Of a stretch of 64,000 bases of DNA, positions 11,651-52,668 are shown piece after piece. The DNA is from a virus. Positions within the stretch are counted from its first letter, which is position 1; each line of letters starts with the position of its first letter. The notes beneath the pieces are model-generated. The model made no database searches and was not told the origin of the DNA. It was given only the letters and a program-made list of their open reading frames with translations. The stretch lies in IMG/VR virus record IMGVR_UViG_3300045747_000527, positions 62,001 through 126,000 of that record; one strand, written 5' to 3'. Made by a program: the position numbers and the translations under genes.

Positions 11651-11965
11651 TCATGCCGGAACCCACTTGCCTTCGCGAATGAACCCGTGGTGCTGACAAG
11701 AAAGACAAAGCACCGACGGAGATATGGTCAGCGGGTCAAGACTCTGCACATCCCATCCACGCGGGTCGGCTGGGTTCACGCCCTTAAACGAAACGCCGCC
11801 CCAGCAACGCCCGCCCTTGCCGTCTGGGTGCTCGTACAAGATTCCAGCCTTAACGCTTTCGGCACTGCCGTGTAATCCATAGAACTGAGCAAGCACGCTG
11901 TGCCCCAGGTCCATCGTGCGAGGATCACTCGGGTCCATGTAGTCTTCTGGATCGCGGTTGCTCAT
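11651..11965 (-). CDS. DUF6527-like small protein
   Basis: Last gene of the late operon in this window. 104 residues from the ATG at 11965, overlapping its upstream neighbour by 4 bases. The C-terminal half reads WDVQSLDPLTISPSVLC, CQHHGFI and GKWV, which matches the layout of DUF6527 proteins (L-T-hSPSh then HGFI...GxW) found in phages. The Cys pair and His pair could bind a metal. It follows a fibre gene, so a tail or capsid decoration role is possible. Confidence 0.65.
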   Translation of the reverse strand: MSNRDPEDYMDPSDPRTMDLGHSVLAQFYGLHGSAESVKAGILYEHPDGKGGRCWGGVSFKGVNPADPRGWDVQSLDPLTISPSVLCLSCQHHGFIREGKWVPA

Positions 11966-12699
11966 ATCGGCCCCGCCTCTGTCGGAACGTAGCCACTGTC
12001 CAGTATCCAATTCGCTGGAATGTCAGCGTAGTTGCTGAGTGACGCAACGGAGTTACCAGCGCCGTAGAAACACCTCGACGAGACGGGGGTATTGGTAAAC
12101 ACTGGCCTTGTCACGCCCTGGTCTGCGAGCTTGCCCGGCACACCCGCCACTCCAATGACCTCGCCGAGCGTGAAGTCAGTTCCGCTGTGGAAGTGCTTCT
12201 TGATTCGGTAGACATAGGTTGAGGTCTTCGACACCACGACCGCCGTCGCAGGCAAGAAGGAGACCTGACCCGTACCGACTCCGGTAACGACCCCAACGTG
12301 GTTCACCCCTGCCACACCAGCTCCAGGGATACAGATGCCCTGGCCAATCGCAAAGTCCCCTGAGTTAGCCACCGTAGCTGTCGTGCTACCGCTGGCAAGA
12401 GTACCGACTACGATTGTGCGAAATGCCGACCCACTCGCAAAATAGGGAGCGTCCTTCACGTTGCGCGTTTTGATGGGTAGATCGATGAGCCTTGTTGGCC
12501 AGTAAGGAGCATCCCCCGACGAGGAAGCTGTAGCTGACGTCTTGTCGTAGCCGTACGGCAAACTAGACCACGGGGATACCCCGTCGCCGATCTTCACATT
12601 GCCTGTATCCTTCTCTCGCCCCATTTCCCCCAGGGCAAGAATCGGGTTTACTGCCGTCCAGGCAGCGGCTAGATCACGTCGTACTCTGATTATTGCCAT
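11962..12699 (-). CDS. Fibre protein with Mtd_N-like N-terminal domain
   Basis: 245 residues; GGAG precedes the ATG. The first 50 residues (RRDLAAAWTAVNPILALGEM, then KIGDGVSPWSSLPYG) match the N-terminal domain seen in Major tropism determinant and many phage fibres, which anchors the protein to the tail. The rest is Gly/Thr/Val-rich and probably beta-structured. A longer protein at 51301-52668 begins with the same domain. Likely a short tail fibre or receptor-binding component. Confidence 0.75.
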   Translation of the reverse strand: MAIIRVRRDLAAAWTAVNPILALGEMGREKDTGNVKIGDGVSPWSSLPYGYDKTSATASSSGDAPYWPTRLIDLPIKTRNVKDAPYFASGSAFRTIVVGTLASGSTTATVANSGDFAIGQGICIPGAGVAGVNHVGVVTGVGTGQVSFLPATAVVVSKTSTYVYRIKKHFHSGTDFTLGEVIGVAGVPGKLADQGVTRPVFTNTPVSSRCFYGAGNSVASLSNYADIPANWILDSGYVPTEAGPI

Positions 12700-26400: not shown

Positions 26401-27920
26401 TAAAAATCGGAGCAGCCCCCAATATGCACCTGGCCCGGCAGGACCTTGATCGCCGCCCTCTCATCAGAGAGAACAATGCCCGACGGAACACCAGAAATGG
26501 TGAGTTCCCGCCTACGAATTTCCCAGCTGAGCTTGGTTACCCAGTTGAGCGAATCTGCGGGAAGAGGGTAACTCCCATTTGCCGGGTCGTCCAAAACCAC
26601 CAGATCAGTAGTATTTCCGTCAAAGCTGACAATCTGACTCTTGCGAGTAGACCGGATCAACACCCACTTTATGTGCTGCTCACCCGCACCGTAGTACGCA
26701 GCAGAGGTTTGGGCATCTACTAGCTGGATATACCCGCCGACGACCTGTGAGATCTTCAGGGTCTTGACGCCGTTCTGCCCAGGAACACCCAAGATCGTTA
26801 TTACGCGACCTACGTCAGATGCATCAAAGACATTAGGACTTGGCACGAGCAGCCTGTCTCTGTGCACCACCTCAATGGACGCCTCGCCCCCACACACGAC
26901 CTCCGTGGTAAGCAGGTACAGCGGAGATTCTGCTGGTACTGGACCAGGGCTAAAACCCGGTGGGAGTACGGTGGCCACCTGAGCACCAAGCCGAGTAGTT
27001 GTGCTACCCCCAGCACCGTCGCTAAGAGGTATGCCGTCTACCCCCGACAAAATCACCTCTCCCAAATCTCCGCCCGTGAGCACATCCCGGTTCATCTCGG
27101 GGTCAGAGCACCCGATTACCTGCAGCTGTGTCAGTGCTGGAAACTCATCCCGGAGTCTTGCGCTCACACCCCGCGGAGTTACCAGGGAGCGTTCCGTAAT
27201 GCTCGCTGCTGTCCTGGCAATGAGATCCTCTGATGTCTCCGTGGGCAAACCACCAGTGAACCTGGTCACATTGGTCACCCGCACAGCCACGCTGATGTTC
27301 GTGACACCCACCAGATAGCCAACGTCGATGTTGTACTGATCTCCTGACTGCTCGGCGACAACATCTACGTCGAAGTAGAACAACGCCCCCGACTGGTTGA
27401 ACGCCATGTTCTCCGCAGAGATGCTCTGCTGCCGATCTGGGTAGAAGCGCAGGTTATCCGCGGTGTAGAACACGTTCCCCACGCTCACACGTACCGCTTG
27501 AGGCGCGTTGAAGTACAACCGGCCCTTACCTCGTGACAGGTCTCCGGTGTTCCGATTGACGAACAGGTTCGCCGCGAAGGCATCCACCTCACTATCCGCC
27601 AGCTGGTCTGGCGCGATAAGAGACTGGCCGTTCTTGATAAGCTGGAGCTCTCTGATCACAGGATCGAGCAGCACCTGCATCGGCTTGATGAGTAAGTCCC
27701 GAAGCCCTGTGCCCTCTTGCACGTTGGTGTCTGGGAACTCTTGAGCCATGCGCGAGTCAAGGAACTCCTCAACGGGCATTTCAAAGGGGTCGGGCTGATA
27801 GCGAACCACGGTAGGCTGCACAACCTGTGCATCCGCGGGAGAGCCTGAGGACAAGTCAATGGTAGGGTCGTAGACACGGAGTCTATCCTGCAGAAACTCT
27901 TCCAGTGTTGTGGTCGCCAT
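23424..27920 (-). CDS. Baseplate J-like (gp6-type) wedge protein
   Basis: 1498 residues from the ATG at 27920, with GGAG 10 bases upstream; a start 54 bases earlier lacks one. The segment of about residues 170-300 has the baseplate J pattern: VVAEQSGDQYNIDVG, a beta stretch, FTGGLPTETSEDLIARTAAS and SLVTPRGVSARLRDEFP, then a GCSDPEM loop. The protein is far longer than P2 gpJ (about 300 residues) and extends with repeated beta-rich domains. It builds the wedge ring that controls sheath contraction in contractile phages. It appears to have its own promoter just upstream. Confidence 0.85.
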   Translation of the reverse strand: MATTTLEEFLQDRLRVYDPTIDLSSGSPADAQVVQPTVVRYQPDPFEMPVEEFLDSRMAQEFPDTNVQEGTGLRDLLIKPMQVLLDPVIRELQLIKNGQSLIAPDQLADSEVDAFAANLFVNRNTGDLSRGKGRLYFNAPQAVRVSVGNVFYTADNLRFYPDRQQSISAENMAFNQSGALFYFDVDVVAEQSGDQYNIDVGYLVGVTNISVAVRVTNVTRFTGGLPTETSEDLIARTAASITERSLVTPRGVSARLRDEFPALTQLQVIGCSDPEMNRDVLTGGDLGEVILSGVDGIPLSDGAGGSTTTRLGAQVATVLPPGFSPGPVPAESPLYLLTTEVVCGGEASIEVVHRDRLLVPSPNVFDASDVGRVITILGVPGQNGVKTLKISQVVGGYIQLVDAQTSAAYYGAGEQHIKWVLIRSTRKSQIVSFDGNTTDLVVLDDPANGSYPLPADSLNWVTKLSWEIRRRELTISGVPSGIVLSDERAAIKVLPGQVHIGGCSDFYVRGQAADAASQVIADLEDENPLFRDGVNGRTISDQRDFFWDRPTPDVSDDSYWYGGMPTTVNFGAMGVEPGDSLIVETGPDAGTRTILRVGRSNAVEPLGSTDHGCLQVTPPFSSTQEFLRYKIVKTVTVNLRQPTLRKASGGDGSTAQSSNVFTTAGAVNFQNFGVAAGDRLRIADGVDAGDYSILRVAGTGSKNLELSAPLTTSAVGVGWEVLRVQAGLQFPLVQIRSVDLLDSSNQPTGHQVPYGVPVDIRSSSFSNLGTGVKCVTSHAIVGIIGRVPLEDVAYPLPTEAALYIYKDYSASPADNELPRVVPLGGVMNKDELVDAINSRLPGVASLFPLDGKHRLQLRSDFSWLHVSAAIPTGGSQYFGIDAMDDNRQIINVREPPAFSWLDPATWAETPEGARAALDAELDSVQIQGAGVAKNTYLKHVDTARLYVLDFDEDKKITRFPEPQYDVPVQVGTRSIGTARIYFKDPTSMEVLGGYRPALLNTADRPANCAAVRNFPSDPDVIQETEVKRTHFTATVNGVPLRFIPDPALSRVIIPDPTSKIPNNLRSTPDRAAGTGYGLVSAHSFNAQVVSSRTEELDFVTRRVRAGDQIDITYRPILATADFNLAGVVGKFMDIRLGGGPRKTLLFTDQVVNASSLVNFINEQLGSTIASIDDTGRLLLEADFSIEIPRVYSTDLLRYALWAVPYLGLPNYLGSTDGLSNAAVNAGSYTIKTTGLTRSMGDTMGLLLVPEDQAQITSEWNSQHFQIRRTGSQRTHVTAMQNQVESGLYYMDVQLLSDGAGDLYNIPDGTVLLATGYEADGYHLQVVDPNLSFSTEEDVNMVFSRQLLLNGETDDLGNAATLAGQNVQVNYDYSSLTESVQLFIGAELDRVVTASLLARHLFPSYLYFELVYQGGSSMEVVQADVDAYLAGLGPTDNAQASSIQKLAMRRGATFVQNPLVLVSLDTNASRVLSVVRSSNVISHGRLSTFFPGKVVVTRR

Positions 27921-27962
27921 TATGTGTTTGCTCCAGGTTCTTTGGGCAGGAGAATGGGGAAG

Positions 27963-27991
27963 ATTATACGCCACCAGCCACCCGGAGTGAA
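27963..27991 (-). promoter_or_regulatory. Sigma70-type promoter for the baseplate J gene
   Basis: On the minus strand a perfect TATAAT (27963-27968 on plus as ATTATA) is preceded by TTCACT (27986-27991) with a 17-base spacer. Four of six -35 bases match TTGACA. The start site would fall about 35 bases before the baseplate J ATG. It lies right after the lipoprotein moron, whose terminator would stop transcription from upstream late genes. Confidence 0.75.
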
Positions 27992-28066
27992 AGAACCGCT
28001 CTGTGACTCAGTGGGGCAAAATGAGGAGGCAAAATGGGTATAAGTACTATGAGGAAAGGAGATCAC

Positions 28067-28861
28067 ATGCGCTACATTACACTGATCATATTGGCCGCGG
28101 GGTGCTCTACTAACACCGCAGGCCTCCAAAACCGCACCACCCCAGGCGCCGATGCCGCCGCCGACATAGTCGTTCAGGTGGACACCCTGACCACCCAGTT
28201 AGCGGACGCCCATTTGGCGGACGCCCAGGTCACCATCCCTTGTGGCGGAGCCTGCGGCGTCGGCACAACCTGCGTGTCTGGCACCTGCCTCGCGACCAGC
28301 GGCCCAGAACCCCAGCAAGGTCCTGAACCCCAGATGGGACCTGAGCCACAGCAGGGGCCAGAGCCTCAGATGGGCCCCGAGCCGCGACAGTTGGTGGAGC
28401 CCCAGCCGCGACTCCCAGGACCCGAGCCCCAACAAGGGCCGGAACCTCAACAGGGCCCGGAACCACAGGGTCTGCTCCGCGAGGTAGGCCCCGAGCCCCG
28501 CCCTGATGGCGGAATGCCTGACACCTCCCCAGTTGGCTGCGGACACATTGGAGAGGCGTGCTGCGCACAGAGAACCTGCATCACAGGGTTCTGCACCAGC
28601 GGCAGCTGCGTGGGCCAGGACGCTGAAGTCGTCACCCCACCGGACACTACACCTGCTTGTGGCGGTGTCGGACAGCTCTGCTGCCTGACCCGAGCGCAAG
28701 CAGTCGCGATGGTGGCGCAAGGACAACCAGCAGACGTAATTCGGCAGTATGACTGCCCAACCAGCTACACGACCAGTGGCTGCTTCGACGTACAAAAGAC
28801 TGACGGCACCTGGGAAGGCCGCTGCCAGACGTGCAAGAACCTGAACAACTGTCCCTCCTAG
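28067..28861 (+). CDS. Cys-rich lipoprotein moron with PEPQ repeats
   Basis: Plus-strand gene inside the minus-strand late region. AAAGGAG lies 5 bases before the ATG at 28067 (264 residues); in-frame ATGs at 28034 (with AGGAGG) and 28049 are alternatives that lengthen the signal. MRYITLIILAAGC is a short lipoprotein signal with a LAAGC lipobox, so an outer- or inner-membrane anchor is expected. Next come a Cys cluster (CGGACGVGTTC), 11-12 GPEPQ-type repeats and a Cys-rich C-terminal half (GEACC...C, GFCTSGSC, GQLCC). Such Cys modules are common in secreted proteins of Myxococcota. Superinfection exclusion or host-surface modification are possible roles; none is shown. Confidence 0.82.
   Translation: MRYITLIILAAGCSTNTAGLQNRTTPGADAAADIVVQVDTLTTQLADAHLADAQVTIPCGGACGVGTTCVSGTCLATSGPEPQQGPEPQMGPEPQQGPEPQMGPEPRQLVEPQPRLPGPEPQQGPEPQQGPEPQGLLREVGPEPRPDGGMPDTSPVGCGHIGEACCAQRTCITGFCTSGSCVGQDAEVVTPPDTTPACGGVGQLCCLTRAQAVAMVAQGQPADVIRQYDCPTSYTTSGCFDVQKTDGTWEGRCQTCKNLNNCPS
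28301..28504 (+). repeat. GPEPQ tandem repeat region
   Basis: About eleven copies of a 12- to 18-base unit encode GPEPQ, GPEPQQ, GPEPQM or GPEPR, with one divergent insertion (LVEPQPRLP). This forms an extended, rigid linker between the N-terminal Cys cluster and the C-terminal Cys-rich part of the lipoprotein, likely lifting the latter away from the membrane. Confidence 0.9.
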
Positions 28862-28868
28862 TTACCTG

Positions 28869-28901
28869 AAAGGCGACCCTTCTGTGGTCGGGGTCGCCTT
28901 T
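28869..28901. terminator. Bidirectional intrinsic terminator between the moron and the late operon
   Basis: AAAGGCGACCC (28869-28879), an 11-base loop and GGGTCGCCTTT (28891-28901) form an 11-bp stem that has As on one side and Ts on the other, so it can end transcription from both directions. It lies 7 bases after the lipoprotein stop and 2 bases before the end of the convergent minus-strand gene. Confidence 0.9.
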
Positions 28902-28903
28902 CT

Positions 28904-29557
28904 CTAGCCCACACCCAAACTGGCGATTGCCGTCTTACCGGATTGCGCGATCAACTCTACTCGTACGTCCAGCCCCGTGTTTTCCGCGTCGTATCTGCAG
29001 CCCAGAAGGTTTGCGGCCATGAGCTTCTCATCACCGGAGAGTTGTGACTGTCGTGCTTGAACAGAGCGCATTTGATCTGCGGCGACATTCACCGCCCTGG
29101 TAACCACAGCTACTACGTTCGCTCCCACAGCTGAATCCGCATTCGTGCCCAGTGCCTCTAATGCTCCGCCTCCCAGGCTGGGCGAAAAAGCGTCGTAGTG
29201 TGGCGTGGTCAGTAAGAACTTGGTGTACGTCTGCATCAAGCAGATCAGACCAGTTGCTTTTTTCGTGTCCCTTCCCAAACGAAAGGTTACCTGGCTCTCT
29301 CTCACAAAACGGAACTCCGAGCTGATTACGGAGACAGACCGCACTGCCTGCGTAGCCAGGTCGATAGGTACCTGTGCGATGACCACGTTGGGGCTTGCGA
29401 TGACGAAGGATGGGCTCGACTCGTCGTTGATTACGACATCTACAGCTGTAGTGAAGTCGGGACCTGTGATACGCAAGGCCCGCGGGGCGTGGTCAGGGAC
29501 TTCGTCCACGCTGGTGAGTGTGAGCAAGTCGCTGAACTGAACGTACTGAATGTCCAT
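28904..29557 (-). CDS. Putative baseplate wedge protein (gp25-like position)
   Basis: 217 residues from the ATG at 29557, which overlaps the TGA of the previous gene (TGATG). It has a beta-rich N-terminal half and a segment GLICLMQTYTKFLLTTPHYD followed by GGGALEALG, which loosely resembles the helix-loop of gp25/GpW-type baseplate proteins, then a long helical region with QARQSQLSGDEKL. It stands directly before the J-like gene, the usual place of a wedge component. The assignment rests on order and weak similarity only. Confidence 0.6.
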   Translation of the reverse strand: MDIQYVQFSDLLTLTSVDEVPDHAPRALRITGPDFTTAVDVVINDESSPSFVIASPNVVIAQVPIDLATQAVRSVSVISSEFRFVRESQVTFRLGRDTKKATGLICLMQTYTKFLLTTPHYDAFSPSLGGGALEALGTNADSAVGANVVAVVTRAVNVAADQMRSVQARQSQLSGDEKLMAANLLGCRYDAENTGLDVRVELIAQSGKTAIASLGVG

Positions 29558-36981: not shown

Positions 36982-38778
36982 CTACAAGATGTACGCAGCT
37001 GTAGGGCGGCGAACGACAAGTGCGATATACTCGCCCCACAACCCTGGCTGATCGAGCATTCCGACATCCCACTTCACCCGTTCCCAGCCCTCGAAGGCTT
37101 TGGCGAATAGGTCCTCCGTGAGGGTGTGCGGGTGGCCGGGCATCTTTGCGGTGTTACGCCACTCGAAAATCCTGACAAGCCGAGCCGCTAGTCCAGCCTT
37201 ACGCAAAATCGACGCAGGGTCTTCGGTATGCTGAAGGCAGTTGTAGATCCAGCACTCGTCCACGTCAACGGTATGTAGATCAGCCACCTCAGCCTTCTGA
37301 TTCATAAAGGCTACACCAGCAGACCTGTACCGCTGCAATGTCTGCTTCGACACGGGCAGTGGATCGACGCCTACCGCGGGGGCGCCATGCCTGTCCGCAC
37401 GTAGAAGCATGGAAGTTGGCCCACACCCGATGTCCAGAACGGTAGTGGGTTTGCCTAGGTCTAGGTCATCTGGCAAACCCATGAGCCGCGCGTAAGTCTC
37501 CTGCTTGCGTACTTCCTCATTCCACCGCTCGTTGGGTTCGAGCCCCCACCAATTGCGCTCGAACTCGGACGCCTCTTCCCACTCTGTTTTGGTCACAGGT
37601 ACAGGCGGAACTTCAAGTGGCCGAGTTAGATCTAAAGGCTCGTGAACACCCTCTGGGTAAACACGACGTCGGCAATCAAGCTGTGTGCGATTGGGATTCT
37701 CCGTGTACCAGCCGGCACCGTTGAGGTTCATCAGACGCTGGAAGTACTCCTCGTACATCAGAGCCACCCGGTCGAGAGAATAATTAGCTAAAGCCCAGTC
37801 ACGACACGCCTTGCGTGAAAGCTTCCCGATATTCTGGGCTGCCCACACAAACTCCTCCATAGTCCGACCAAGATAACCTGTAACACCGTGGACGACCGTC
37901 TCCGGGAAAACACCAAAGTCAGTGGCGATGACCGGCGTTCCAGACATTTGCGCCTCGATATTCACCCCACCGAAAGGCTCGATGTACCACGTAGGGCAAA
38001 GTAACGCCTTCGCGCCGGCCATCAGTTCCTTGCGCTCCTCTACGCCTACGGGAGGGATATACTCAACATGCGAGCCGACCGCGAGGAACGGCGTAGGGTC
38101 ACCCTGTCCCACGATCTTAATCTTCATGCCCACGCGCTTGGCCACATCGCAAGCTACCCCTACGCCCTTGTCTTCGTTCAGTCGCCCAACGAAGAGCAGG
38201 TAGTCTCCAGGTGTCTCTCGGTACTCAAACATATCTGGATCAAACGCATTCGGGATCACAGCGTCGAGCCAGCACTGACCCCCAAACTTGTTCTCCTTGC
38301 CATAAAGCATGTGCGCCCAGGCGTGAGACTCGAAAACACGATACTTCGCCCAGGTATGCGGATATCCGATCCCTGACTCCACCACAAACTGGGGGAGGTC
38401 TTGGACAGCAACTTGTTGCGCCCCTCCCCAGGTCACGCAGATGATCGCCGAGTTGGATTCCGGCGTGCGCTTCAGAATCTCGGCCCGCATGTTGGCCGAG
38501 AATTCATCCATGAACTCTTTGAAGCCAGGGGCCTGCGTTTCGAGGTTGTAGAAGTCGGTATTCTTGGCCCCGCCATACAGGGCCTCCCACCGCTCGGACG
38601 ACATGACCGAAACGTGTTCCGCGCATTCCGGCGTGCTGCCCTCGTTGCCAAGGTGGATGACCTCGTGCCCCCTGCGGTGAAGCATCTTGCACAGGTGGTA
38701 TGCCTTCATCGTGAAAGCGCACGTTGTGAATTCCAGACTGGTTCGAGTGTGCGGCAATCCTAGGACGAAAATCTTCAT
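36982..38778 (-). CDS. Fused GT4 glycosyltransferase and SAM methyltransferase
   Basis: 598 residues from the ATG at 38778 (GAAAGGAAAC upstream); a start at 38817 has no ribosome site. The N-terminal 390 residues form a GT-B fold family 4 glycosyltransferase: VGRLNEDKGVG, CPTWYIEPFGGVNIEAQMSG and the loop GTPVIATDFGVFPE with the conserved Glu. The C-terminal 190 residues are a Rossmann methyltransferase with VLDIGCGPTSML as SAM-binding motif I. One chain would transfer and methylate a sugar. The target (capsid, fibre or host glycan) is unknown. It is not a typical structural gene and looks acquired. Confidence 0.85.
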   Translation of the reverse strand: MKIFVLGLPHTRTSLEFTTCAFTMKAYHLCKMLHRRGHEVIHLGNEGSTPECAEHVSVMSSERWEALYGGAKNTDFYNLETQAPGFKEFMDEFSANMRAEILKRTPESNSAIICVTWGGAQQVAVQDLPQFVVESGIGYPHTWAKYRVFESHAWAHMLYGKENKFGGQCWLDAVIPNAFDPDMFEYRETPGDYLLFVGRLNEDKGVGVACDVAKRVGMKIKIVGQGDPTPFLAVGSHVEYIPPVGVEERKELMAGAKALLCPTWYIEPFGGVNIEAQMSGTPVIATDFGVFPETVVHGVTGYLGRTMEEFVWAAQNIGKLSRKACRDWALANYSLDRVALMYEEYFQRLMNLNGAGWYTENPNRTQLDCRRRVYPEGVHEPLDLTRPLEVPPVPVTKTEWEEASEFERNWWGLEPNERWNEEVRKQETYARLMGLPDDLDLGKPTTVLDIGCGPTSMLLRADRHGAPAVGVDPLPVSKQTLQRYRSAGVAFMNQKAEVADLHTVDVDECWIYNCLQHTEDPASILRKAGLAARLVRIFEWRNTAKMPGHPHTLTEDLFAKAFEGWERVKWDVGMLDQPGLWGEYIALVVRRPTAAYIL

Positions 38779-38807
38779 GCTTGGATGTTTCCTTTCAGGA
38801 CATGCTG

Positions 38808-41800
38808 TCAACGGCACATCATAAGCCAGAACCCGGCTGGTGTTGCGGCGGGCGGAGCCGCAGATTGCATATTGTACGCCTCAAACTCGGCGAGGCCCAC
38901 GCCGCTGGTCAGTGCGCTGACGGCGGTGACGGTCAATCGAATCCAGGTCACCGTGCGGGCCGAGAAATCGAACACGCAGGACCGCGCTTGGTTGTCGATT
39001 GCGGGGATGTAAAACGGAGCAGACCCGTCGCTGAACGTGATGGTCGCGCCTTGCATCCAGTCGTTGGGATTTCCGCGATCCCACAGCACGATCCGATTGA
39101 TGGTTTGTGCGCTCCCCCAGGTCAGTTGAATCCACTCGCCAATACCACCCGAAGATGCCCATTCGTTAGTTCCTGCTCCGTAGGGATACCAGGCGAAAAC
39201 ATTGTCAATCGCTGCGGATGCCGGGTTTGCTGCGGTCGATGATGTTGCGGTTGCAGTTAGGGCGAGGTCTGGGGCGCCGAGGCTGTACGCCTCAAATTCC
39301 ATCAGGCCGACGGCGGTGGCACCGGCCGCAGCGGTCGATACGGTGAACTGCACCCACGTCACCGTGCGAGCGGCAGCGAGCGTGATCACGTTCGGCAACA
39401 TCGAGACGTTGCCGCCCGTGGCAGAGAACGCGGTGAAAGTCGGCACAGCTACGTTGCTACCGGCATCACTGAATGAGAGGGAGCCTGCTGTGATCAATTG
39501 CGCCGCTGCCGCGCGCCCGAAAAGGACCAATCGATCGATGGTCTGAGGGGTGGCCCACGTCAGCCGAATCCATGCGCCCGCACCTTCGGTAGAAACCCAC
39601 TCGTTCGCGGCACCCGTCGGGCCAGCGGTCCCGTCAATCACGCCATCGACCGCGCGCGCGGCGGTGGTGCTCCCGGTGCTCACCGTGACAGTGGCCTGCG
39701 GGGCGAGGTCAATCGCGCGCGGGTTGTTGAGATAGACGAGAGCCGTATCCGCCGCGCTCCACGTGGCACCAGAATCGTCGGAAACTCTTAGCTCGAAAAC
39801 AAGTTCTTGGGCGAGCCATCCCGCAGTGGTCGCCGCTGTGGATGGAGCCGTGAATGTTGGGCTGGCCACGGTCGCGCTGGAAAGCGTAGCCGTCGGACCT
39901 GCGATTTGCTGCCACCAGTACGAGATAGATCCGCCGCCCGGCTTGTGACTTCCGGATCCGTCGAGCGTAACCGTCGTGCCCTGAACGGCATCCTGGACTG
40001 AACCCGCCCGAGCCACCGGGGGATTGGCAGCGCCGAGTGGACGTGATGCCCAAAAGACCTCGTCCGCGTGAAGGAAAAGACTGAGGAACGGATCGGTGCC
40101 CCCGCCTTGTGTGGAGTGCGCGGCCAGCGAAGTGAATTTCGTGTTTGGAAGAGCCGCGTATCCAGCATTACTCAGGGGCAGCCGCATCGACGGCAGCACG
40201 TCGATCCTGAAGCTATCATTCCACACAAGATCCGTCGAGCCTAGGTGCGCGGGCGCTGTCTGGTAGGTCAGCGGATTTGTGGCCAGGGGCCATGTGACTG
40301 CGCCGCCTACGGTGTTGTCCCAGACGATTGTTTCGAGCAGTACCGGGTTATAGGTAGGGTTCGTCCCTGCGACAATTGCGAGCGCGTCCGTGACTGCGTT
40401 GAATGTTGCCTTGTGCGACTCGTGCGTGTCCCAATCGCTGGTCGTGAGAATTGTGTCGGGGAGAAATGTTCCGATCACTTCCGCTAGATCGTGAACAAAG
40501 TTGTACCAGTTATACGTCGCATGAACCCCACTGTGCGCGTAAGCGTGCCACTCGGCGCTGCCTAGTCCCCTCGTGCCGTAGGTGTGATTCGTGCTTGTTG
40601 ACGGTGCGGTGTAGGTGTCGCCAGAATTTGGGTAAGTGTCGTGGAGGATTTGTAGGTAGCTGTCGGGGTAGCCCAGGAAAATGCAATGGTCTTCTGCTGT
40701 CCCGAGGTTGGCTTGCGCGGCGACGCCTTCGCCCTGCCTGGTCCCGCCTGCCGCCAGCCCGCCAAAATCCCCGTTGGTCGTAAAAACTACTCGGACCGTG
40801 GAGCCGTCGTTGTTCGCTCTGTAGGTAACACCGGCAAACGCGATTATGTCGTCGTCAGGATGGGGAGAGATCACCATCATGTTGTTGGTGACGAGCGCCG
40901 TATATGTCGATGTCGATGGATTGATCCACGACTGCGCGTTGGTGACTGTGAGTGTGACGGTTCCGAGCCCGGCCGGGGTGTACGTGAACGTGAAGCCTGT
41001 AGCTGCGTTCGCGGGCGTGACAACGCACGTCCCTGTGCCTGGACTTCCGACCGACGGAGTGAAAGCCCCTCCCGCTCCTCCGTCGCTTAGAGTGACAGTC
41101 TCGGACCCGTTGAACGTGTCGGCAACGAGTCCGACTGTGAAGTTCGACGAAGCTACGCCGTTTCCGCCAAAGACAGGCCCCGTTTTGGTGAGCTGTTGGA
41201 ATGGGACAAGAATGTACGTCCACGCAACGTAATTGTCTGCGGATTGGGCCGTCTGTGAAAGCGTCGCCGTGCCGACGGCACCGGCACCCATCCCGTCTCG
41301 ATAGGTCGCGCCGAACGAATAGCCGTTGGCGGTAGAGTTAACGTTGCATTGGGTGCCGTTGATGATGTACGCAGCTGATGCGTCCGACTTGGTGTTAGGG
41401 GTGTTGTTGTCTGCCGTCGCGTACATGCGCAAGAGAACGCGGTCAGGCCCGCCCGACGTTGCAGTGGGTGCCGTCATTGTCGCCGTGGGGGACGCTCCGA
41501 CTACCGTGACGGCGCTCGCCTCGACCTGTGTCGCGGCCCAGGCTCCGGTGGGTGAACGCTCAACAAACCCAACGACGCCCCATGTGAACAAAGAGCCGCT
41601 AACTGTGAACGTGGCAGTGGTGGAGTCCGCATTGCCTGCACCCCACGTCTTTTTGTAGATGGCGAAATGGTGAGTCGTGTCTGGCGACTGATCACCGTTG
41701 GCGTCGAGAAGCGTCCACCCCTGCCCCGTTGGCGGGGTGAACGTGGCAGCGTTCGCGCTCGCGAAGTTAGCAAAGCACACGGCAAACAGCAGATCCCCAC

Positions 41801-41903
41801 TCTGGGGCGTGAAGGCCGCGCCCGCGAGAGTGGAGAAATTGAGCGCCCTGGTTGCCCCAGTGGTTCCCGATACTGTAGCCGTGCGACCCTGCGAAGACGC
41901 CAT
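38808..41903 (-). CDS. Fibre-like protein: PIG-L deacetylase plus Ig and two discoidin-like domains
   Basis: 1031 residues; its ATG overlaps the previous stop (TAATG). About 340-560 is a PIG-L/LmbE-type deacetylase: MVISPHPDDDIIAFA (zinc His and Asp), FTTNGDFGG, GEGVAAQANLG, and SDWDTHESHK with two further His. It would remove acetyl groups from N-acetyl sugars. Before it are beta-sandwich domains; after it a PKD-like stretch (GTTVTLDGSGSHKPGGG) and two F5/8 type C (discoidin) modules, about 730-870 and 880-1010, that usually bind sugars. The combination predicts a virion enzyme acting on host surface polysaccharide. Confidence 0.85.
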   Translation of the reverse strand: MASSQGRTATVSGTTGATRALNFSTLAGAAFTPQSGDLLFAVCFANFASANAATFTPPTGQGWTLLDANGDQSPDTTHHFAIYKKTWGAGNADSTTATFTVSGSLFTWGVVGFVERSPTGAWAATQVEASAVTVVGASPTATMTAPTATSGGPDRVLLRMYATADNNTPNTKSDASAAYIINGTQCNVNSTANGYSFGATYRDGMGAGAVGTATLSQTAQSADNYVAWTYILVPFQQLTKTGPVFGGNGVASSNFTVGLVADTFNGSETVTLSDGGAGGAFTPSVGSPGTGTCVVTPANAATGFTFTYTPAGLGTVTLTVTNAQSWINPSTSTYTALVTNNMMVISPHPDDDIIAFAGVTYRANNDGSTVRVVFTTNGDFGGLAAGGTRQGEGVAAQANLGTAEDHCIFLGYPDSYLQILHDTYPNSGDTYTAPSTSTNHTYGTRGLGSAEWHAYAHSGVHATYNWYNFVHDLAEVIGTFLPDTILTTSDWDTHESHKATFNAVTDALAIVAGTNPTYNPVLLETIVWDNTVGGAVTWPLATNPLTYQTAPAHLGSTDLVWNDSFRIDVLPSMRLPLSNAGYAALPNTKFTSLAAHSTQGGGTDPFLSLFLHADEVFWASRPLGAANPPVARAGSVQDAVQGTTVTLDGSGSHKPGGGSISYWWQQIAGPTATLSSATVASPTFTAPSTAATTAGWLAQELVFELRVSDDSGATWSAADTALVYLNNPRAIDLAPQATVTVSTGSTTAARAVDGVIDGTAGPTGAANEWVSTEGAGAWIRLTWATPQTIDRLVLFGRAAAAQLITAGSLSFSDAGSNVAVPTFTAFSATGGNVSMLPNVITLAAARTVTWVQFTVSTAAAGATAVGLMEFEAYSLGAPDLALTATATSSTAANPASAAIDNVFAWYPYGAGTNEWASSGGIGEWIQLTWGSAQTINRIVLWDRGNPNDWMQGATITFSDGSAPFYIPAIDNQARSCVFDFSARTVTWIRLTVTAVSALTSGVGLAEFEAYNMQSAAPPAATPAGFWLMMCR

Positions 41904-50236: not shown

Positions 50237-51301
50237 CTAGATACCCATCGTTGCGCGCATGTCGGCAAGCCAGTCCGTGATCTCCCCGATGCTAGTATCG
50301 TGCGCCGGGTCCGGGCCGCTGGTGTCGTCTGTCTTGCAGTACAGCCGCGCCGTGCTGTCGCAGGCTGCGATATTTTGCTGCAAACCTGTCATCCAATCGT
50401 TGTAGCGGACCCAGTCCACACCGGGAAAGGTGGCGTCTGTCAACCCGTTGCAAATCATGGTTCGACGATTGGGAACGCTCGCACACAGTTGGAAAATGTT
50501 CCCATAGTCTCCCGATATTCCGTGCCGATAAAGGGGCTGCGCTCGATACTGCTCCCAATCGGTAGCCCCGATCCATTCATTGGAACTTGGAGGGTTTGGT
50601 CGCACGTAGCGGGGTAGCTGACCCTGAAATGGAGCCACGTGCAGATAGCGGGCGTCAATGATCCCAAGCTGAGCGCAGGTAAGACCGCCGCCCGAGTGAC
50701 CAGACAGGACAAACCGCATCGTGGAATAGTCCGCGTGCATCTGATTAACGCCTCGAATGATGTGGTCAAAGAACATTCGCATGGAGCAGGGGCCGCCGTC
50801 GGCGTCAAGGGCGCTGAAATTGTGATTGTTGGGAAGCGCGAACGTGGTCAGGACGGAGTTGACCACTACCTGCTGCGTCGCTGGCTGCTGTCCAGAGCCT
50901 GGCATATCATAGACAAGAACGTCGCAGCCAGCAGCCAAGGCCACGCGGATAGGAGACGACCCGTCCGTTGCTAGGTGAGTGACGGACCACCCGTCCCCCA
51001 CCGATTCGTGGCCAGTCAGATACACGCTGCACACGTTGACCGGAGTCGCATTGGGGCGCATGTGCCACCCGTAGAGCGGAGTTCCCCCAGTGCGGCCACC
51101 TGGGTCCGACACAGTGAATAGCCGCATACTCGCCGCCTCGGCTGGCAAAGCAATTGCCCCACTGTACGCCGCTACCGAGCTTGGCATCGTAGCCGGAAGT
51201 CCCGACGGGTAAATGTATGTCGAGAATTGCGCCCGCAACGCGGCCCACCCTGCTGGTGTTGATGGGTAGCCGCGCTGCCATTGAGAGACGATGGGTAGCA
51301 T
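50237..51301 (-). CDS. Alpha/beta-hydrolase fold enzyme (esterase-like)
   Basis: 354 residues; its ATG overlaps the preceding stop codon (TAATG), indicating coupling. The nucleophile elbow is GHSGGG (Ser near residue 200), and the preceding strand VLVYDMPGSG fits the alpha/beta-hydrolase oxyanion region. C-terminal Asp and His candidates include DDTSGPDPAHD. There is no signal peptide. The gene sits between two fibre genes, so it may be a virion-borne or co-expressed esterase that deacylates surface polysaccharide. The substrate cannot be read from sequence. Confidence 0.8.
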   Translation of the reverse strand: MLPIVSQWQRGYPSTPAGWAALRAQFSTYIYPSGLPATMPSSVAAYSGAIALPAEAASMRLFTVSDPGGRTGGTPLYGWHMRPNATPVNVCSVYLTGHESVGDGWSVTHLATDGSSPIRVALAAGCDVLVYDMPGSGQQPATQQVVVNSVLTTFALPNNHNFSALDADGGPCSMRMFFDHIIRGVNQMHADYSTMRFVLSGHSGGGLTCAQLGIIDARYLHVAPFQGQLPRYVRPNPPSSNEWIGATDWEQYRAQPLYRHGISGDYGNIFQLCASVPNRRTMICNGLTDATFPGVDWVRYNDWMTGLQQNIAACDSTARLYCKTDDTSGPDPAHDTSIGEITDWLADMRATMGI

Positions 51302-52668
51302 TAGAACCGCTTTACCGCCCAGAATAAGTCATCAATTGTCATAACAACAGGCGCCGAGATCACTATCATTGGGTCTAGCTGGTACCCCCCGACTCCAGCT
51401 GAGTCGGTAAACGGTCCAATCCACGCGCCGAAGTCTAGCGACGCGCGCCAAGTCCCATTGCCCAAGAATTCCACCGCGAACCAGTGGTAGTCAGTATCGC
51501 GTGCGCCTAGCTCATGCAAATCCCCGCTAACGGGATTCCCTCCTGTGGGATTGAAGCCGCCTCCGAATGCGTAAAATTTATTAGGGTCTGCTGCTCCAGC
51601 ATTCCAGATCCCGATGCTAACCGATGACTGAACCCACGAAACCAAGCGACCAGCCGCAGAAAACTTGATCCGCTCTACCCACAGGATTCGGTCGTTTGGT
51701 GCCCACTGCGAAGGGCCTTTGATTCCACTCGTAATCCAATAGTTGAGCGCATCCGCTCCTGTCATTTTGACCGCCGACACAGACGTCGTGTCCTGCATCG
51801 GCCCGTTAAGGCCGCTGGAAATTTGCCCATAGTTAGGGTAATGCCCAGAAGTGGGCCACCCCGCGATAGGTGGATTGGCGTCAAACCCCACAGTGAAGCT
51901 CTTCGCGTCGAATGGATCGTAAAAAATGTCATAGTTTGCAGGCGTCCCGCCCAAGTCCTGGCAGGCCATCGCGGTCAGTTGATCCTTGAGCGACATAGGC
52001 GCCGACGACGTGATCAGATTGCCGACCTTGGCCGAATAGACAGCGCCGACGCTGGTGTCAACGTAGGGGCACCCGAGAAATACGGAAATTGCCAGCGGAC
52101 TCGGCACCGTCGATGTTGCCCTGCCAGCCGTAGCGCTCAGGTAGCATGGAACATTGAGTGTCGGCGCTGCGACGAAATTGAGCTTGGCCGAGTTGCCTGA
52201 TAGCGGGTTAACTGCCGCACCGTCGTATACGCCAAGTGGGCCAGCGCAGTTCGTTGCCGAGTCTGAAGCGGCAGGCGCCCACACCCCGGCAGACACGCGA
52301 CGGACCACGTCGCCAGCAACGGCTGCGCCCACGCTGGTCAACGTCTCATCGTAGACGAAGCGCGAACGGTCAAGAGCGGTCATCGCCCCCGGCGCGTTGG
52401 GGGTGGCGGGCCTGTACTCGCTCGCCTTGTGGAGCCCGTCAGCGTCTAGCGATGACACTCCATTGGCGGCTCCCCTATGCGAGGCAGGAATTGCAGTTGT
52501 GTCTACTTCATACGGAAGAGACGACCATGGTGTAGTCCCATCGCCCGCCTTGGACGTGGCCGTGTCTATTTCCAGGCCCAGCTCCCCCGCCAGCAGCACG
52601 GGATTCGCTGCGGTCCAATTCGCAGCCGTATCTCGGCGCAGTTGTACTTTCGCTATTTTCGTCGCCAT
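51301..52668 (-). CDS. Tail fibre with Mtd_N-like N-terminal domain
   Basis: 455 residues. The first 50 residues (VQLRRDTAANWTAANPVLLA, then AGDGTTPWSSLPY) match the Mtd_N anchor domain. Then follow a Ala/Ser/Val-rich shaft and a C-terminal part with Trp and Gly (GTWRASLDFGAWIGPF) that resembles a lectin-like jelly-roll. It is expected to bind a host receptor. The same anchor occurs in a protein at the other end of the late region, perhaps as an alternative fibre. Confidence 0.8.
   Translation of the reverse strand: MATKIAKVQLRRDTAANWTAANPVLLAGELGLEIDTATSKAGDGTTPWSSLPYEVDTTAIPASHRGAANGVSSLDADGLHKASEYRPATPNAPGAMTALDRSRFVYDETLTSVGAAVAGDVVRRVSAGVWAPAASDSATNCAGPLGVYDGAAVNPLSGNSAKLNFVAAPTLNVPCYLSATAGRATSTVPSPLAISVFLGCPYVDTSVGAVYSAKVGNLITSSAPMSLKDQLTAMACQDLGGTPANYDIFYDPFDAKSFTVGFDANPPIAGWPTSGHYPNYGQISSGLNGPMQDTTSVSAVKMTGADALNYWITSGIKGPSQWAPNDRILWVERIKFSAAGRLVSWVQSSVSIGIWNAGAADPNKFYAFGGGFNPTGGNPVSGDLHELGARDTDYHWFAVEFLGNGTWRASLDFGAWIGPFTDSAGVGGYQLDPMIVISAPVVMTIDDLFWAVKRF

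What the first reader, a model, noticed from the sequence alone, without database searches (positions are those of the whole stretch)
27921..28903. Lipoprotein moron on the opposite strand with bidirectional terminator and restarted late promoter
A plus-strand gene interrupts the late operon. It brings an 11-bp bidirectional terminator on one side, and on the other side a near-consensus promoter restarts the baseplate J gene. The Cys-rich protein is secreted and has GPEPQ repeats like host surface proteins. This is a model moron cassette.
Basis: partly seen in the sequence, partly recalled or inferred. Interest (0 to 1): 0.75.

Follow-up and report, generated by a model that had tools for sequence, protein, structure and literature searches.

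The report
Early-promoter lipoprotein moron in tail operon
A large uncultured bacterial virus carries a self-contained one-gene cassette, with the virus's own (probably early) promoter and terminator, that makes a cysteine-rich surface lipoprotein; it sits between two tail genes that touch each other in every relative found, and related phages carry similar lipoprotein cassettes elsewhere, which suggests a recurring way of remodelling the infected cell's surface.

Summary
The cassette is real and is a moron by the comparative test. Window 27921-28903 lies in a 191-kb IMG/VR phage record. In all seven relatives where both genes could be placed, the two flanking tail genes abut (0-8 bp or overlap) and the 983-bp insert is absent. 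The gene starts at ATG 28067, not 28034: lipobox LAAG|C, GPEPQ linker, Cys modules like those of Myxococcota lipoproteins.

Three corrections. By analogy with RNAP-encoding jumbo phages it is an early promoter. (2) The terminator is a phage-type plus-strand terminator (stem + TTTCTCTAGCC), not clearly bidirectional. (3) The J 'late promoter' (TTCACT-17-TATAAT) is only weakly supported.

Two related phages carry lipoproteins of the same architecture, with the same promoter, at two other sites. Codon usage is phage-like, so recent capture from a host is not supported. Best guess at function: early superinfection exclusion, analogous to T5 Llp but not homologous; inferred only.

The parts
27921..28903 (+). 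inserted cassette (983 bp) between the stop of the 28904 gene and the start of baseplate J
   Evidence: the two genes abut or lie within 8 bp in L052, L053, L054, L076, L079/L080, L084, L085
28019..28044 (+). phage-class promoter AA-N16-GGTATAAG (AA at 28019-28020, GGTATAAG at 28037-28044) for the lipoprotein gene
   Evidence: 33 genome sites vs 1.6 expected; A at -18 in 31/31 aligned sites; left-out score 27.5 bits vs shuffled maximum 10.4
28055..28061 (+). ribosome-binding site AAAGGAG
   Evidence: sequence
28067..28861 (+). lipoprotein gene, 264 aa, ATG start
28067..28105 (+). signal peptide and lipobox MRYITLIILAAG|C, lipidated Cys13 predicted
   Evidence: sequence; N terminus resembles a second phage lipoprotein
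28298..28480 (+). GPEPQ/GPEPQM low-complexity linker (approximate limits)
28538..28609 (+). Cys module CGHIGEACC..TC..GFC..GSC (residues 158-181)
   Evidence: profile of natural modules, 14.2 bits, above 2000 of 2000 shuffles
28658..28858 (+). C-terminal Cys-rich domain starting CGGVGQLCC (residues 198-264)
28868..28909 (+). terminator: 12-13-bp stem plus phage-type tail TTTCTCTAGCC
27963..27991 (-). sigma70-like site TTCACT-17-TATAAT upstream of J; function uncertain
   Evidence: not the phage motif
23424..27920 (-). baseplate J-like gene (downstream neighbour), ATG at 27920
   Evidence: PF04865 and phrog_6; start supported by alignment with relatives
28904..29557 (-). conserved tail-operon gene (upstream neighbour)
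   Evidence: 43-47% identity with relatives

Best explanation
A moron: a self-contained transcription unit (phage-specific promoter, one lipoprotein gene, phage-type terminator) inserted between two genes of the late tail operon, on the opposite strand. The promoter belongs to the phage's non-late class, probably early and probably read by a phage RNA polymerase. The protein would be made early, exported by Sec, lipidated at Cys13 and carried to the outer membrane, with a Pro-rich stalk and disulfide-rich modules at the tip. Most likely it changes the surface of the infected cell so that further phages are kept out (superinfection exclusion, as T5 Llp does). Shown by sequence: absence of the insert in relatives, promoter match, lipobox, Cys modules, stem and tail. 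Inferred: early timing, outer-membrane location, disulfides, exclusion function.
For: Flanking genes contiguous in seven relatives. Promoter; kept upstream of homologous genes in relatives. Terminator tail shared with other phage units, 15 plus-strand and 2 minus-strand places. Lipobox and Cys modules. Two related phages have one lipoprotein each of the same architecture with the same promoter at other sites. Conserved motifs upstream of early operons mark early promoters in RNAP-encoding jumbo phages (PMC7598289). T5 Llp is an early lipoprotein next to the receptor-binding gene (PMC9586334).
Against: No transcript or phenotype data. No family match for the protein. At 264 aa it is larger than the small exclusion lipoproteins. 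In G403 the cassette is not beside tail genes. Similarity among the three lipoproteins is weak outside the N terminus and the CGxxGQxCC motif.
Confidence: 0.6

Rival explanations
1. The same moron, but the lipoprotein serves another surface role during infection, for example protecting the infected cell from predators, cell-cell adhesion or mimicry of a host lipoprotein, rather than exclusion of phages.
For: Cys modules and a GPEP linker like those of Myxococcota lipoproteins.
Against: No function is known for those host proteins here; a short-lived infected cell gains little from long-term traits.
Confidence: 0.25
2. The cassette matters mainly for regulation: its promoter, terminator and opposing transcription set the level or timing of J, and the protein is incidental.
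For: J, which follows its neighbour directly in relatives, is here cut off by a stem-loop and given a sigma70-like site. PMC2629481 reports that the P22 ant moron affects tailspike expression.
Against: The reading frame, lipobox and Cys pattern are intact and recur in other phages at sites not next to J.
Confidence: 0.08
3. The lipoprotein is the outer-membrane half of a two-component spanin (Rz1-like) and acts in lysis.
For: Lipoprotein with a Pro-rich stretch, as Rz1 (own knowledge).
Against: Much longer and Cys-rich, a non-late type promoter, no inner-membrane spanin gene beside or overlapping it.
Confidence: 0.04
4. A gene recently captured from a bacterial host together with its own host promoter.
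For: GC 0.647, higher than in all 106 phage genes compared; host-like modules.
Against: Synonymous codon usage at the 48th percentile of phage genes and GC3 0.69 against a mean of 0.67, so the high GC comes from amino-acid content; promoter and terminator are phage-type; no close homolog found in the genome scan.
Confidence: 0.03

Closest known systems
Morons of lambdoid phages, in particular lambda bor (outer-membrane lipoprotein; PMC7067206)
   Same: Lipoprotein gene inserted among phage genes as an independent unit on the strand opposite to the late genes
   Different: Bor is expressed from the prophage and is linked to serum resistance; here the promoter is a phage-lineage motif, no sequence homology, and no sign of lysogeny was looked for or seen
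Superinfection-exclusion lipoproteins: T5 Llp, T1-type Cor (PMC9586334), Ltp of phage TP-J34 (PMC3952083)
   Same: Lipobox; Llp is expressed early and its gene lies next to a host-recognition gene; here the gene is beside baseplate J
   Different: Llp and Cor are small; this protein is 264 aa, with a repeat linker and Cys modules; no homology detected; exclusion untested
Cys-module lipoproteins of Myxococcota (unnamed; L011, L012)
   Same: Lipobox, low-complexity linker, CGxxG[EQ]xCC-C-C-C modules
   Different: Host proteins often have many tandem modules; the phage protein has one full module, a partial one and a different C terminus
[quoted passage not shown] PMC7598289)
   Same: One highly conserved AT-rich motif upstream of presumed early operons
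   Different: Different sequence, with an added near-invariant AA 17-18 nt upstream; no transcript data; the genome found is under 200 kb

Membership tests
[quoted passage not shown]
Moron | Own promoter | tested here: met
   by sequence only: phage motif at 28019-28044
Moron | Own terminator | tested here: met
   by sequence only: stem plus TTTCTCTAGCC
Moron | Base composition different from neighbours | tested here: inconclusive
   GC is high, but synonymous codon usage is typical of the phage
Moron | Not needed for lytic growth | not testable with these tools
   absent from relatives at this site; needs a deletion mutant
Superinfection-exclusion lipoproteins (Llp/Cor/Ltp) | Lipoprotein signal | tested here: met
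   lipobox LAAG|C by pattern only
Superinfection-exclusion lipoproteins (Llp/Cor/Ltp) | Sequence homology to a known member | tested here: not met
   no match in Pfam, PHROGs, NCBIfam or PDB
Superinfection-exclusion lipoproteins (Llp/Cor/Ltp) | Expressed early in infection | tested here: inconclusive
   promoter class suggests it; no RNA data
Superinfection-exclusion lipoproteins (Llp/Cor/Ltp) | Blocks the receptor or DNA entry | not testable with these tools
   needs expression and phage challenge
Lambda Bor family | Sequence homology to Bor | tested here: not met
   no Bor match in Pfam at E up to 1

The most novel reading that the evidence does not exclude
A family of phage-adapted lipoprotein cassettes moves among sites in the genomes of one lineage of large uncultured phages. 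It keeps the lineage's own early promoter, a short lipoprotein head and a disulfide-rich tip built from host-type modules while swapping the low-complexity stalk (GPEPQ, PDT, GTGG), and serves as a changeable exclusion device made before the tail genes it sits among.
Probability: 0.3. Interest if true: 0.65.

Novelty: new variant of a known kind. Interest (0 to 1): 0.45.

Why it matters
It shows a moron wired into the phage's own, probably early, regulon instead of a host or prophage promoter, and gives a concrete, testable promoter (AA-N16-GGTATAAG) and terminator grammar for a lineage of large uncultured phages. Lipoprotein cassettes of this type at three sites in three phages point to selection for changing the host surface during infection. 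If the exclusion function holds, it would extend the Llp/Cor strategy to a new protein architecture.

Tried and rejected
Direct homolog searches with the whole lipoprotein in viral contigs, phages, plasmids and genomes found nothing. Whole-protein hits in Myxococcota were driven by Pro/Glu repeats, some in an unlikely frame, and were discarded apart from L017. The C-terminal search gave only noise-level hits. The Pfam Trypan_PARP hit is far below its cut-off and reflects the repeats. Single-sequence AlphaFold gave mean pLDDT 48, uninformative, so no fold search was run. No direct repeat longer than 8 bp flanks the insert. No paper was found for GGTATAAG as a phage promoter (open-access papers only). 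Rows 2-6 of alignment A2 used for one search were motif variants that I made up, so that scan is biased towards CGxxG[EQ]xCC; the later Cys positions were not part of its scan pattern. Rarity of TATAAT (4 vs 41 expected) was considered as support for the J promoter, but TATAAC and TATAAA are as rare.

Full report
Setting. The window is positions 62001-126000 of a 191,220-bp IMG/VR virus record. It is a contractile-tailed phage: baseplate J, tail sheath, major head protein, terminase, DNA polymerase, primase and UvsX-like recombinase. It also encodes a 2059-aa RNA-polymerase-like protein with NADFDGD. The structural genes run on the minus strand.

Observation. The gene, the inverted repeat, the lipobox, the Cys-rich GPEPQ protein and the sigma70-like site upstream of J are all present. 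The start codon should be ATG 28067 (AAAGGAG at 28055-28061), because ATG 28034 lies upstream of the transcription start implied by the promoter described below.

Insertion. Terminase and J searches gave relatives. In L052, L053, L054, L076, L079 (with its near-duplicate L080), L084 and L085 the homologs of the 28904 gene and of J are adjacent, 0-8 bp apart or overlapping; in the closer ones the further upstream genes keep the same order. L078 is too divergent to place exactly. Only the window phage has the 983-bp insert, so it is most simply a gain. This meets the comparative definition of a moron (PMC2629481).

Promoter. GGTATAAG is the most over-represented 8-mer of the genome, 33 sites against 1.6 expected, and occurs in 9 of 63 intergenic upstream regions against 0.12 expected. 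Aligned sites, chosen by GGTATAAG alone after leaving out two inside genes, share A at -18 in 31 of 31 and at -17 in 30 of 31. In relatives the motif is kept upstream of homologous genes, such as the small acidic gene and the gene starting MSYAD, again mainly on the strand opposite the late genes. The cassette's site (28019-28044), left out of training, scores 27.5 bits against a maximum of 10.4 in a shuffled genome. In RNAP-encoding jumbo phages such a motif marks early promoters, while middle and late promoters could not be predicted from sequence (PMC7598289). Hence 'probably early'; there are no transcript data.

Terminator. The stem is followed by TTTCTCTAGCC. This class of tail occurs at 15 plus-strand and 2 minus-strand places, most plus-strand ones with a hairpin above the 95% level of random places, and 9 of 28 plus-strand promoters have such a tail within 70 bp upstream. 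The cassette is therefore built like the units of the phage's own non-late regions. The minus-strand side lacks a U-rich tail, so bidirectional action is unproven.

J promoter. TTCACT-17-TATAAT has 10 of 12 matches; a shuffled gap reaches this in about 1-2% of cases. TATAAT is rare in the genome (4), but so are TATAAC and TATAAA. The site does not fit the phage motif. J may be restarted there or reached by read-through; this is undecided.

Protein. A profile of 16 Cys modules taken from a Myxococcales, a Sandaracinaceae and a Bacteriovoracaceae protein hits residues 158-181 and 198-206, above all 2000 composition-preserving shuffles. CGxxGQxCC is found in 21 of 141 genomes of the Sandaracinaceae phylum (Myxococcota), often in tandem and with far more matches than the reversed control, and in 3 of 144 genomes of the Bacteriovoracaceae phylum. 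No other phyla were sampled, so this supports but does not prove a Myxococcota-type origin or host. One Myxococcota lipoprotein has a GPEPD linker right after its lipobox. The gene's synonymous codon usage is at the 48th percentile of phage genes; its high GC comes from amino-acid content. The cassette is thus adapted to the phage.

Recurrence. In L084 (record G402) a 291-aa lipoprotein with a PDT linker and ACGGDGQSCCITQ sits on the opposite strand in a neighbouring junction of the same tail operon, with the same promoter. In G403 a 366-aa lipoprotein with a GTGG linker and CGNVGQPCC, whose N terminus resembles the window protein (BLASTP E 3e-4 for the single comparison), has the same promoter and lies just before a gene that resembles the window phage's 131406 gene. 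Each of the three phages has exactly one lipoprotein among its GGTATAAG units. Common descent with movement, or repeated capture, are both possible.

Function. No family match. Non-late expression, envelope targeting and a place beside baseplate genes fit superinfection exclusion as in T5 Llp (PMC9586334). I give that function about 40% on its own and the structural statement (moron with phage promoter and terminator) about 90%; the single figure of 0.6 is a compromise.

Noticed in passing
L004:1340-7519, minus strand (genome 41340-47519, outside the window): One 2059-aa protein matches RNA polymerase beta-subunit families over most of its length and carries NADFDGD, as if beta and beta' parts were fused in one chain.
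   Followed up: partly
whole record, e.g. L002 and L008: AGATCAAA/TTTGATCT (38 vs 8.2 expected) and TAAGATCT (28 vs 4.3) are strongly over-represented 8-mers besides the promoter motif.
   Followed up: no
window 38808-41903, minus strand: 1031-aa protein with PIG-L deacetylase, PKD, F5/8 type C and DUF7402 domains inside the structural cluster.
   Followed up: no
window 36982-38817, minus strand: Glycosyltransferase fused to a methyltransferase-like domain.
   Followed up: no
window 51301-52668 and 11962-12699, minus strand: Two proteins share an N-terminal domain of the Mtd / tail-fibre attachment type; no diversity-generating retroelement was looked for.
   Followed up: no
L004:15058-17325, plus strand (genome 55058-57325): Helicase-like protein with HNH endonuclease matches in its middle, possibly an intein.
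   Followed up: no
L046 and L047, 1001-3478: Terminase match spans about 640 bp more than in other relatives, possibly an intron or intein in the terminase gene.
   Followed up: no
G391 near 136539 (minus) and G399 near 181030 (plus): Two further phage relatives encode small lipoproteins with low-complexity linkers but without the Cys motif or the GGTATAAG promoter.
   Followed up: no
L084:1804-2415, minus strand: A second gene in the neighbouring insert of that relative (203 aa) has a variant promoter GGTATAAA with AA at -18.
   Followed up: no
L009, plus strand (genome 189872-191212): A 446-aa protein at the record's end begins MAHQAYAVIDLGFGDSGKGTIVDYL, resembling adenylosuccinate synthetase (from memory).
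   Followed up: no
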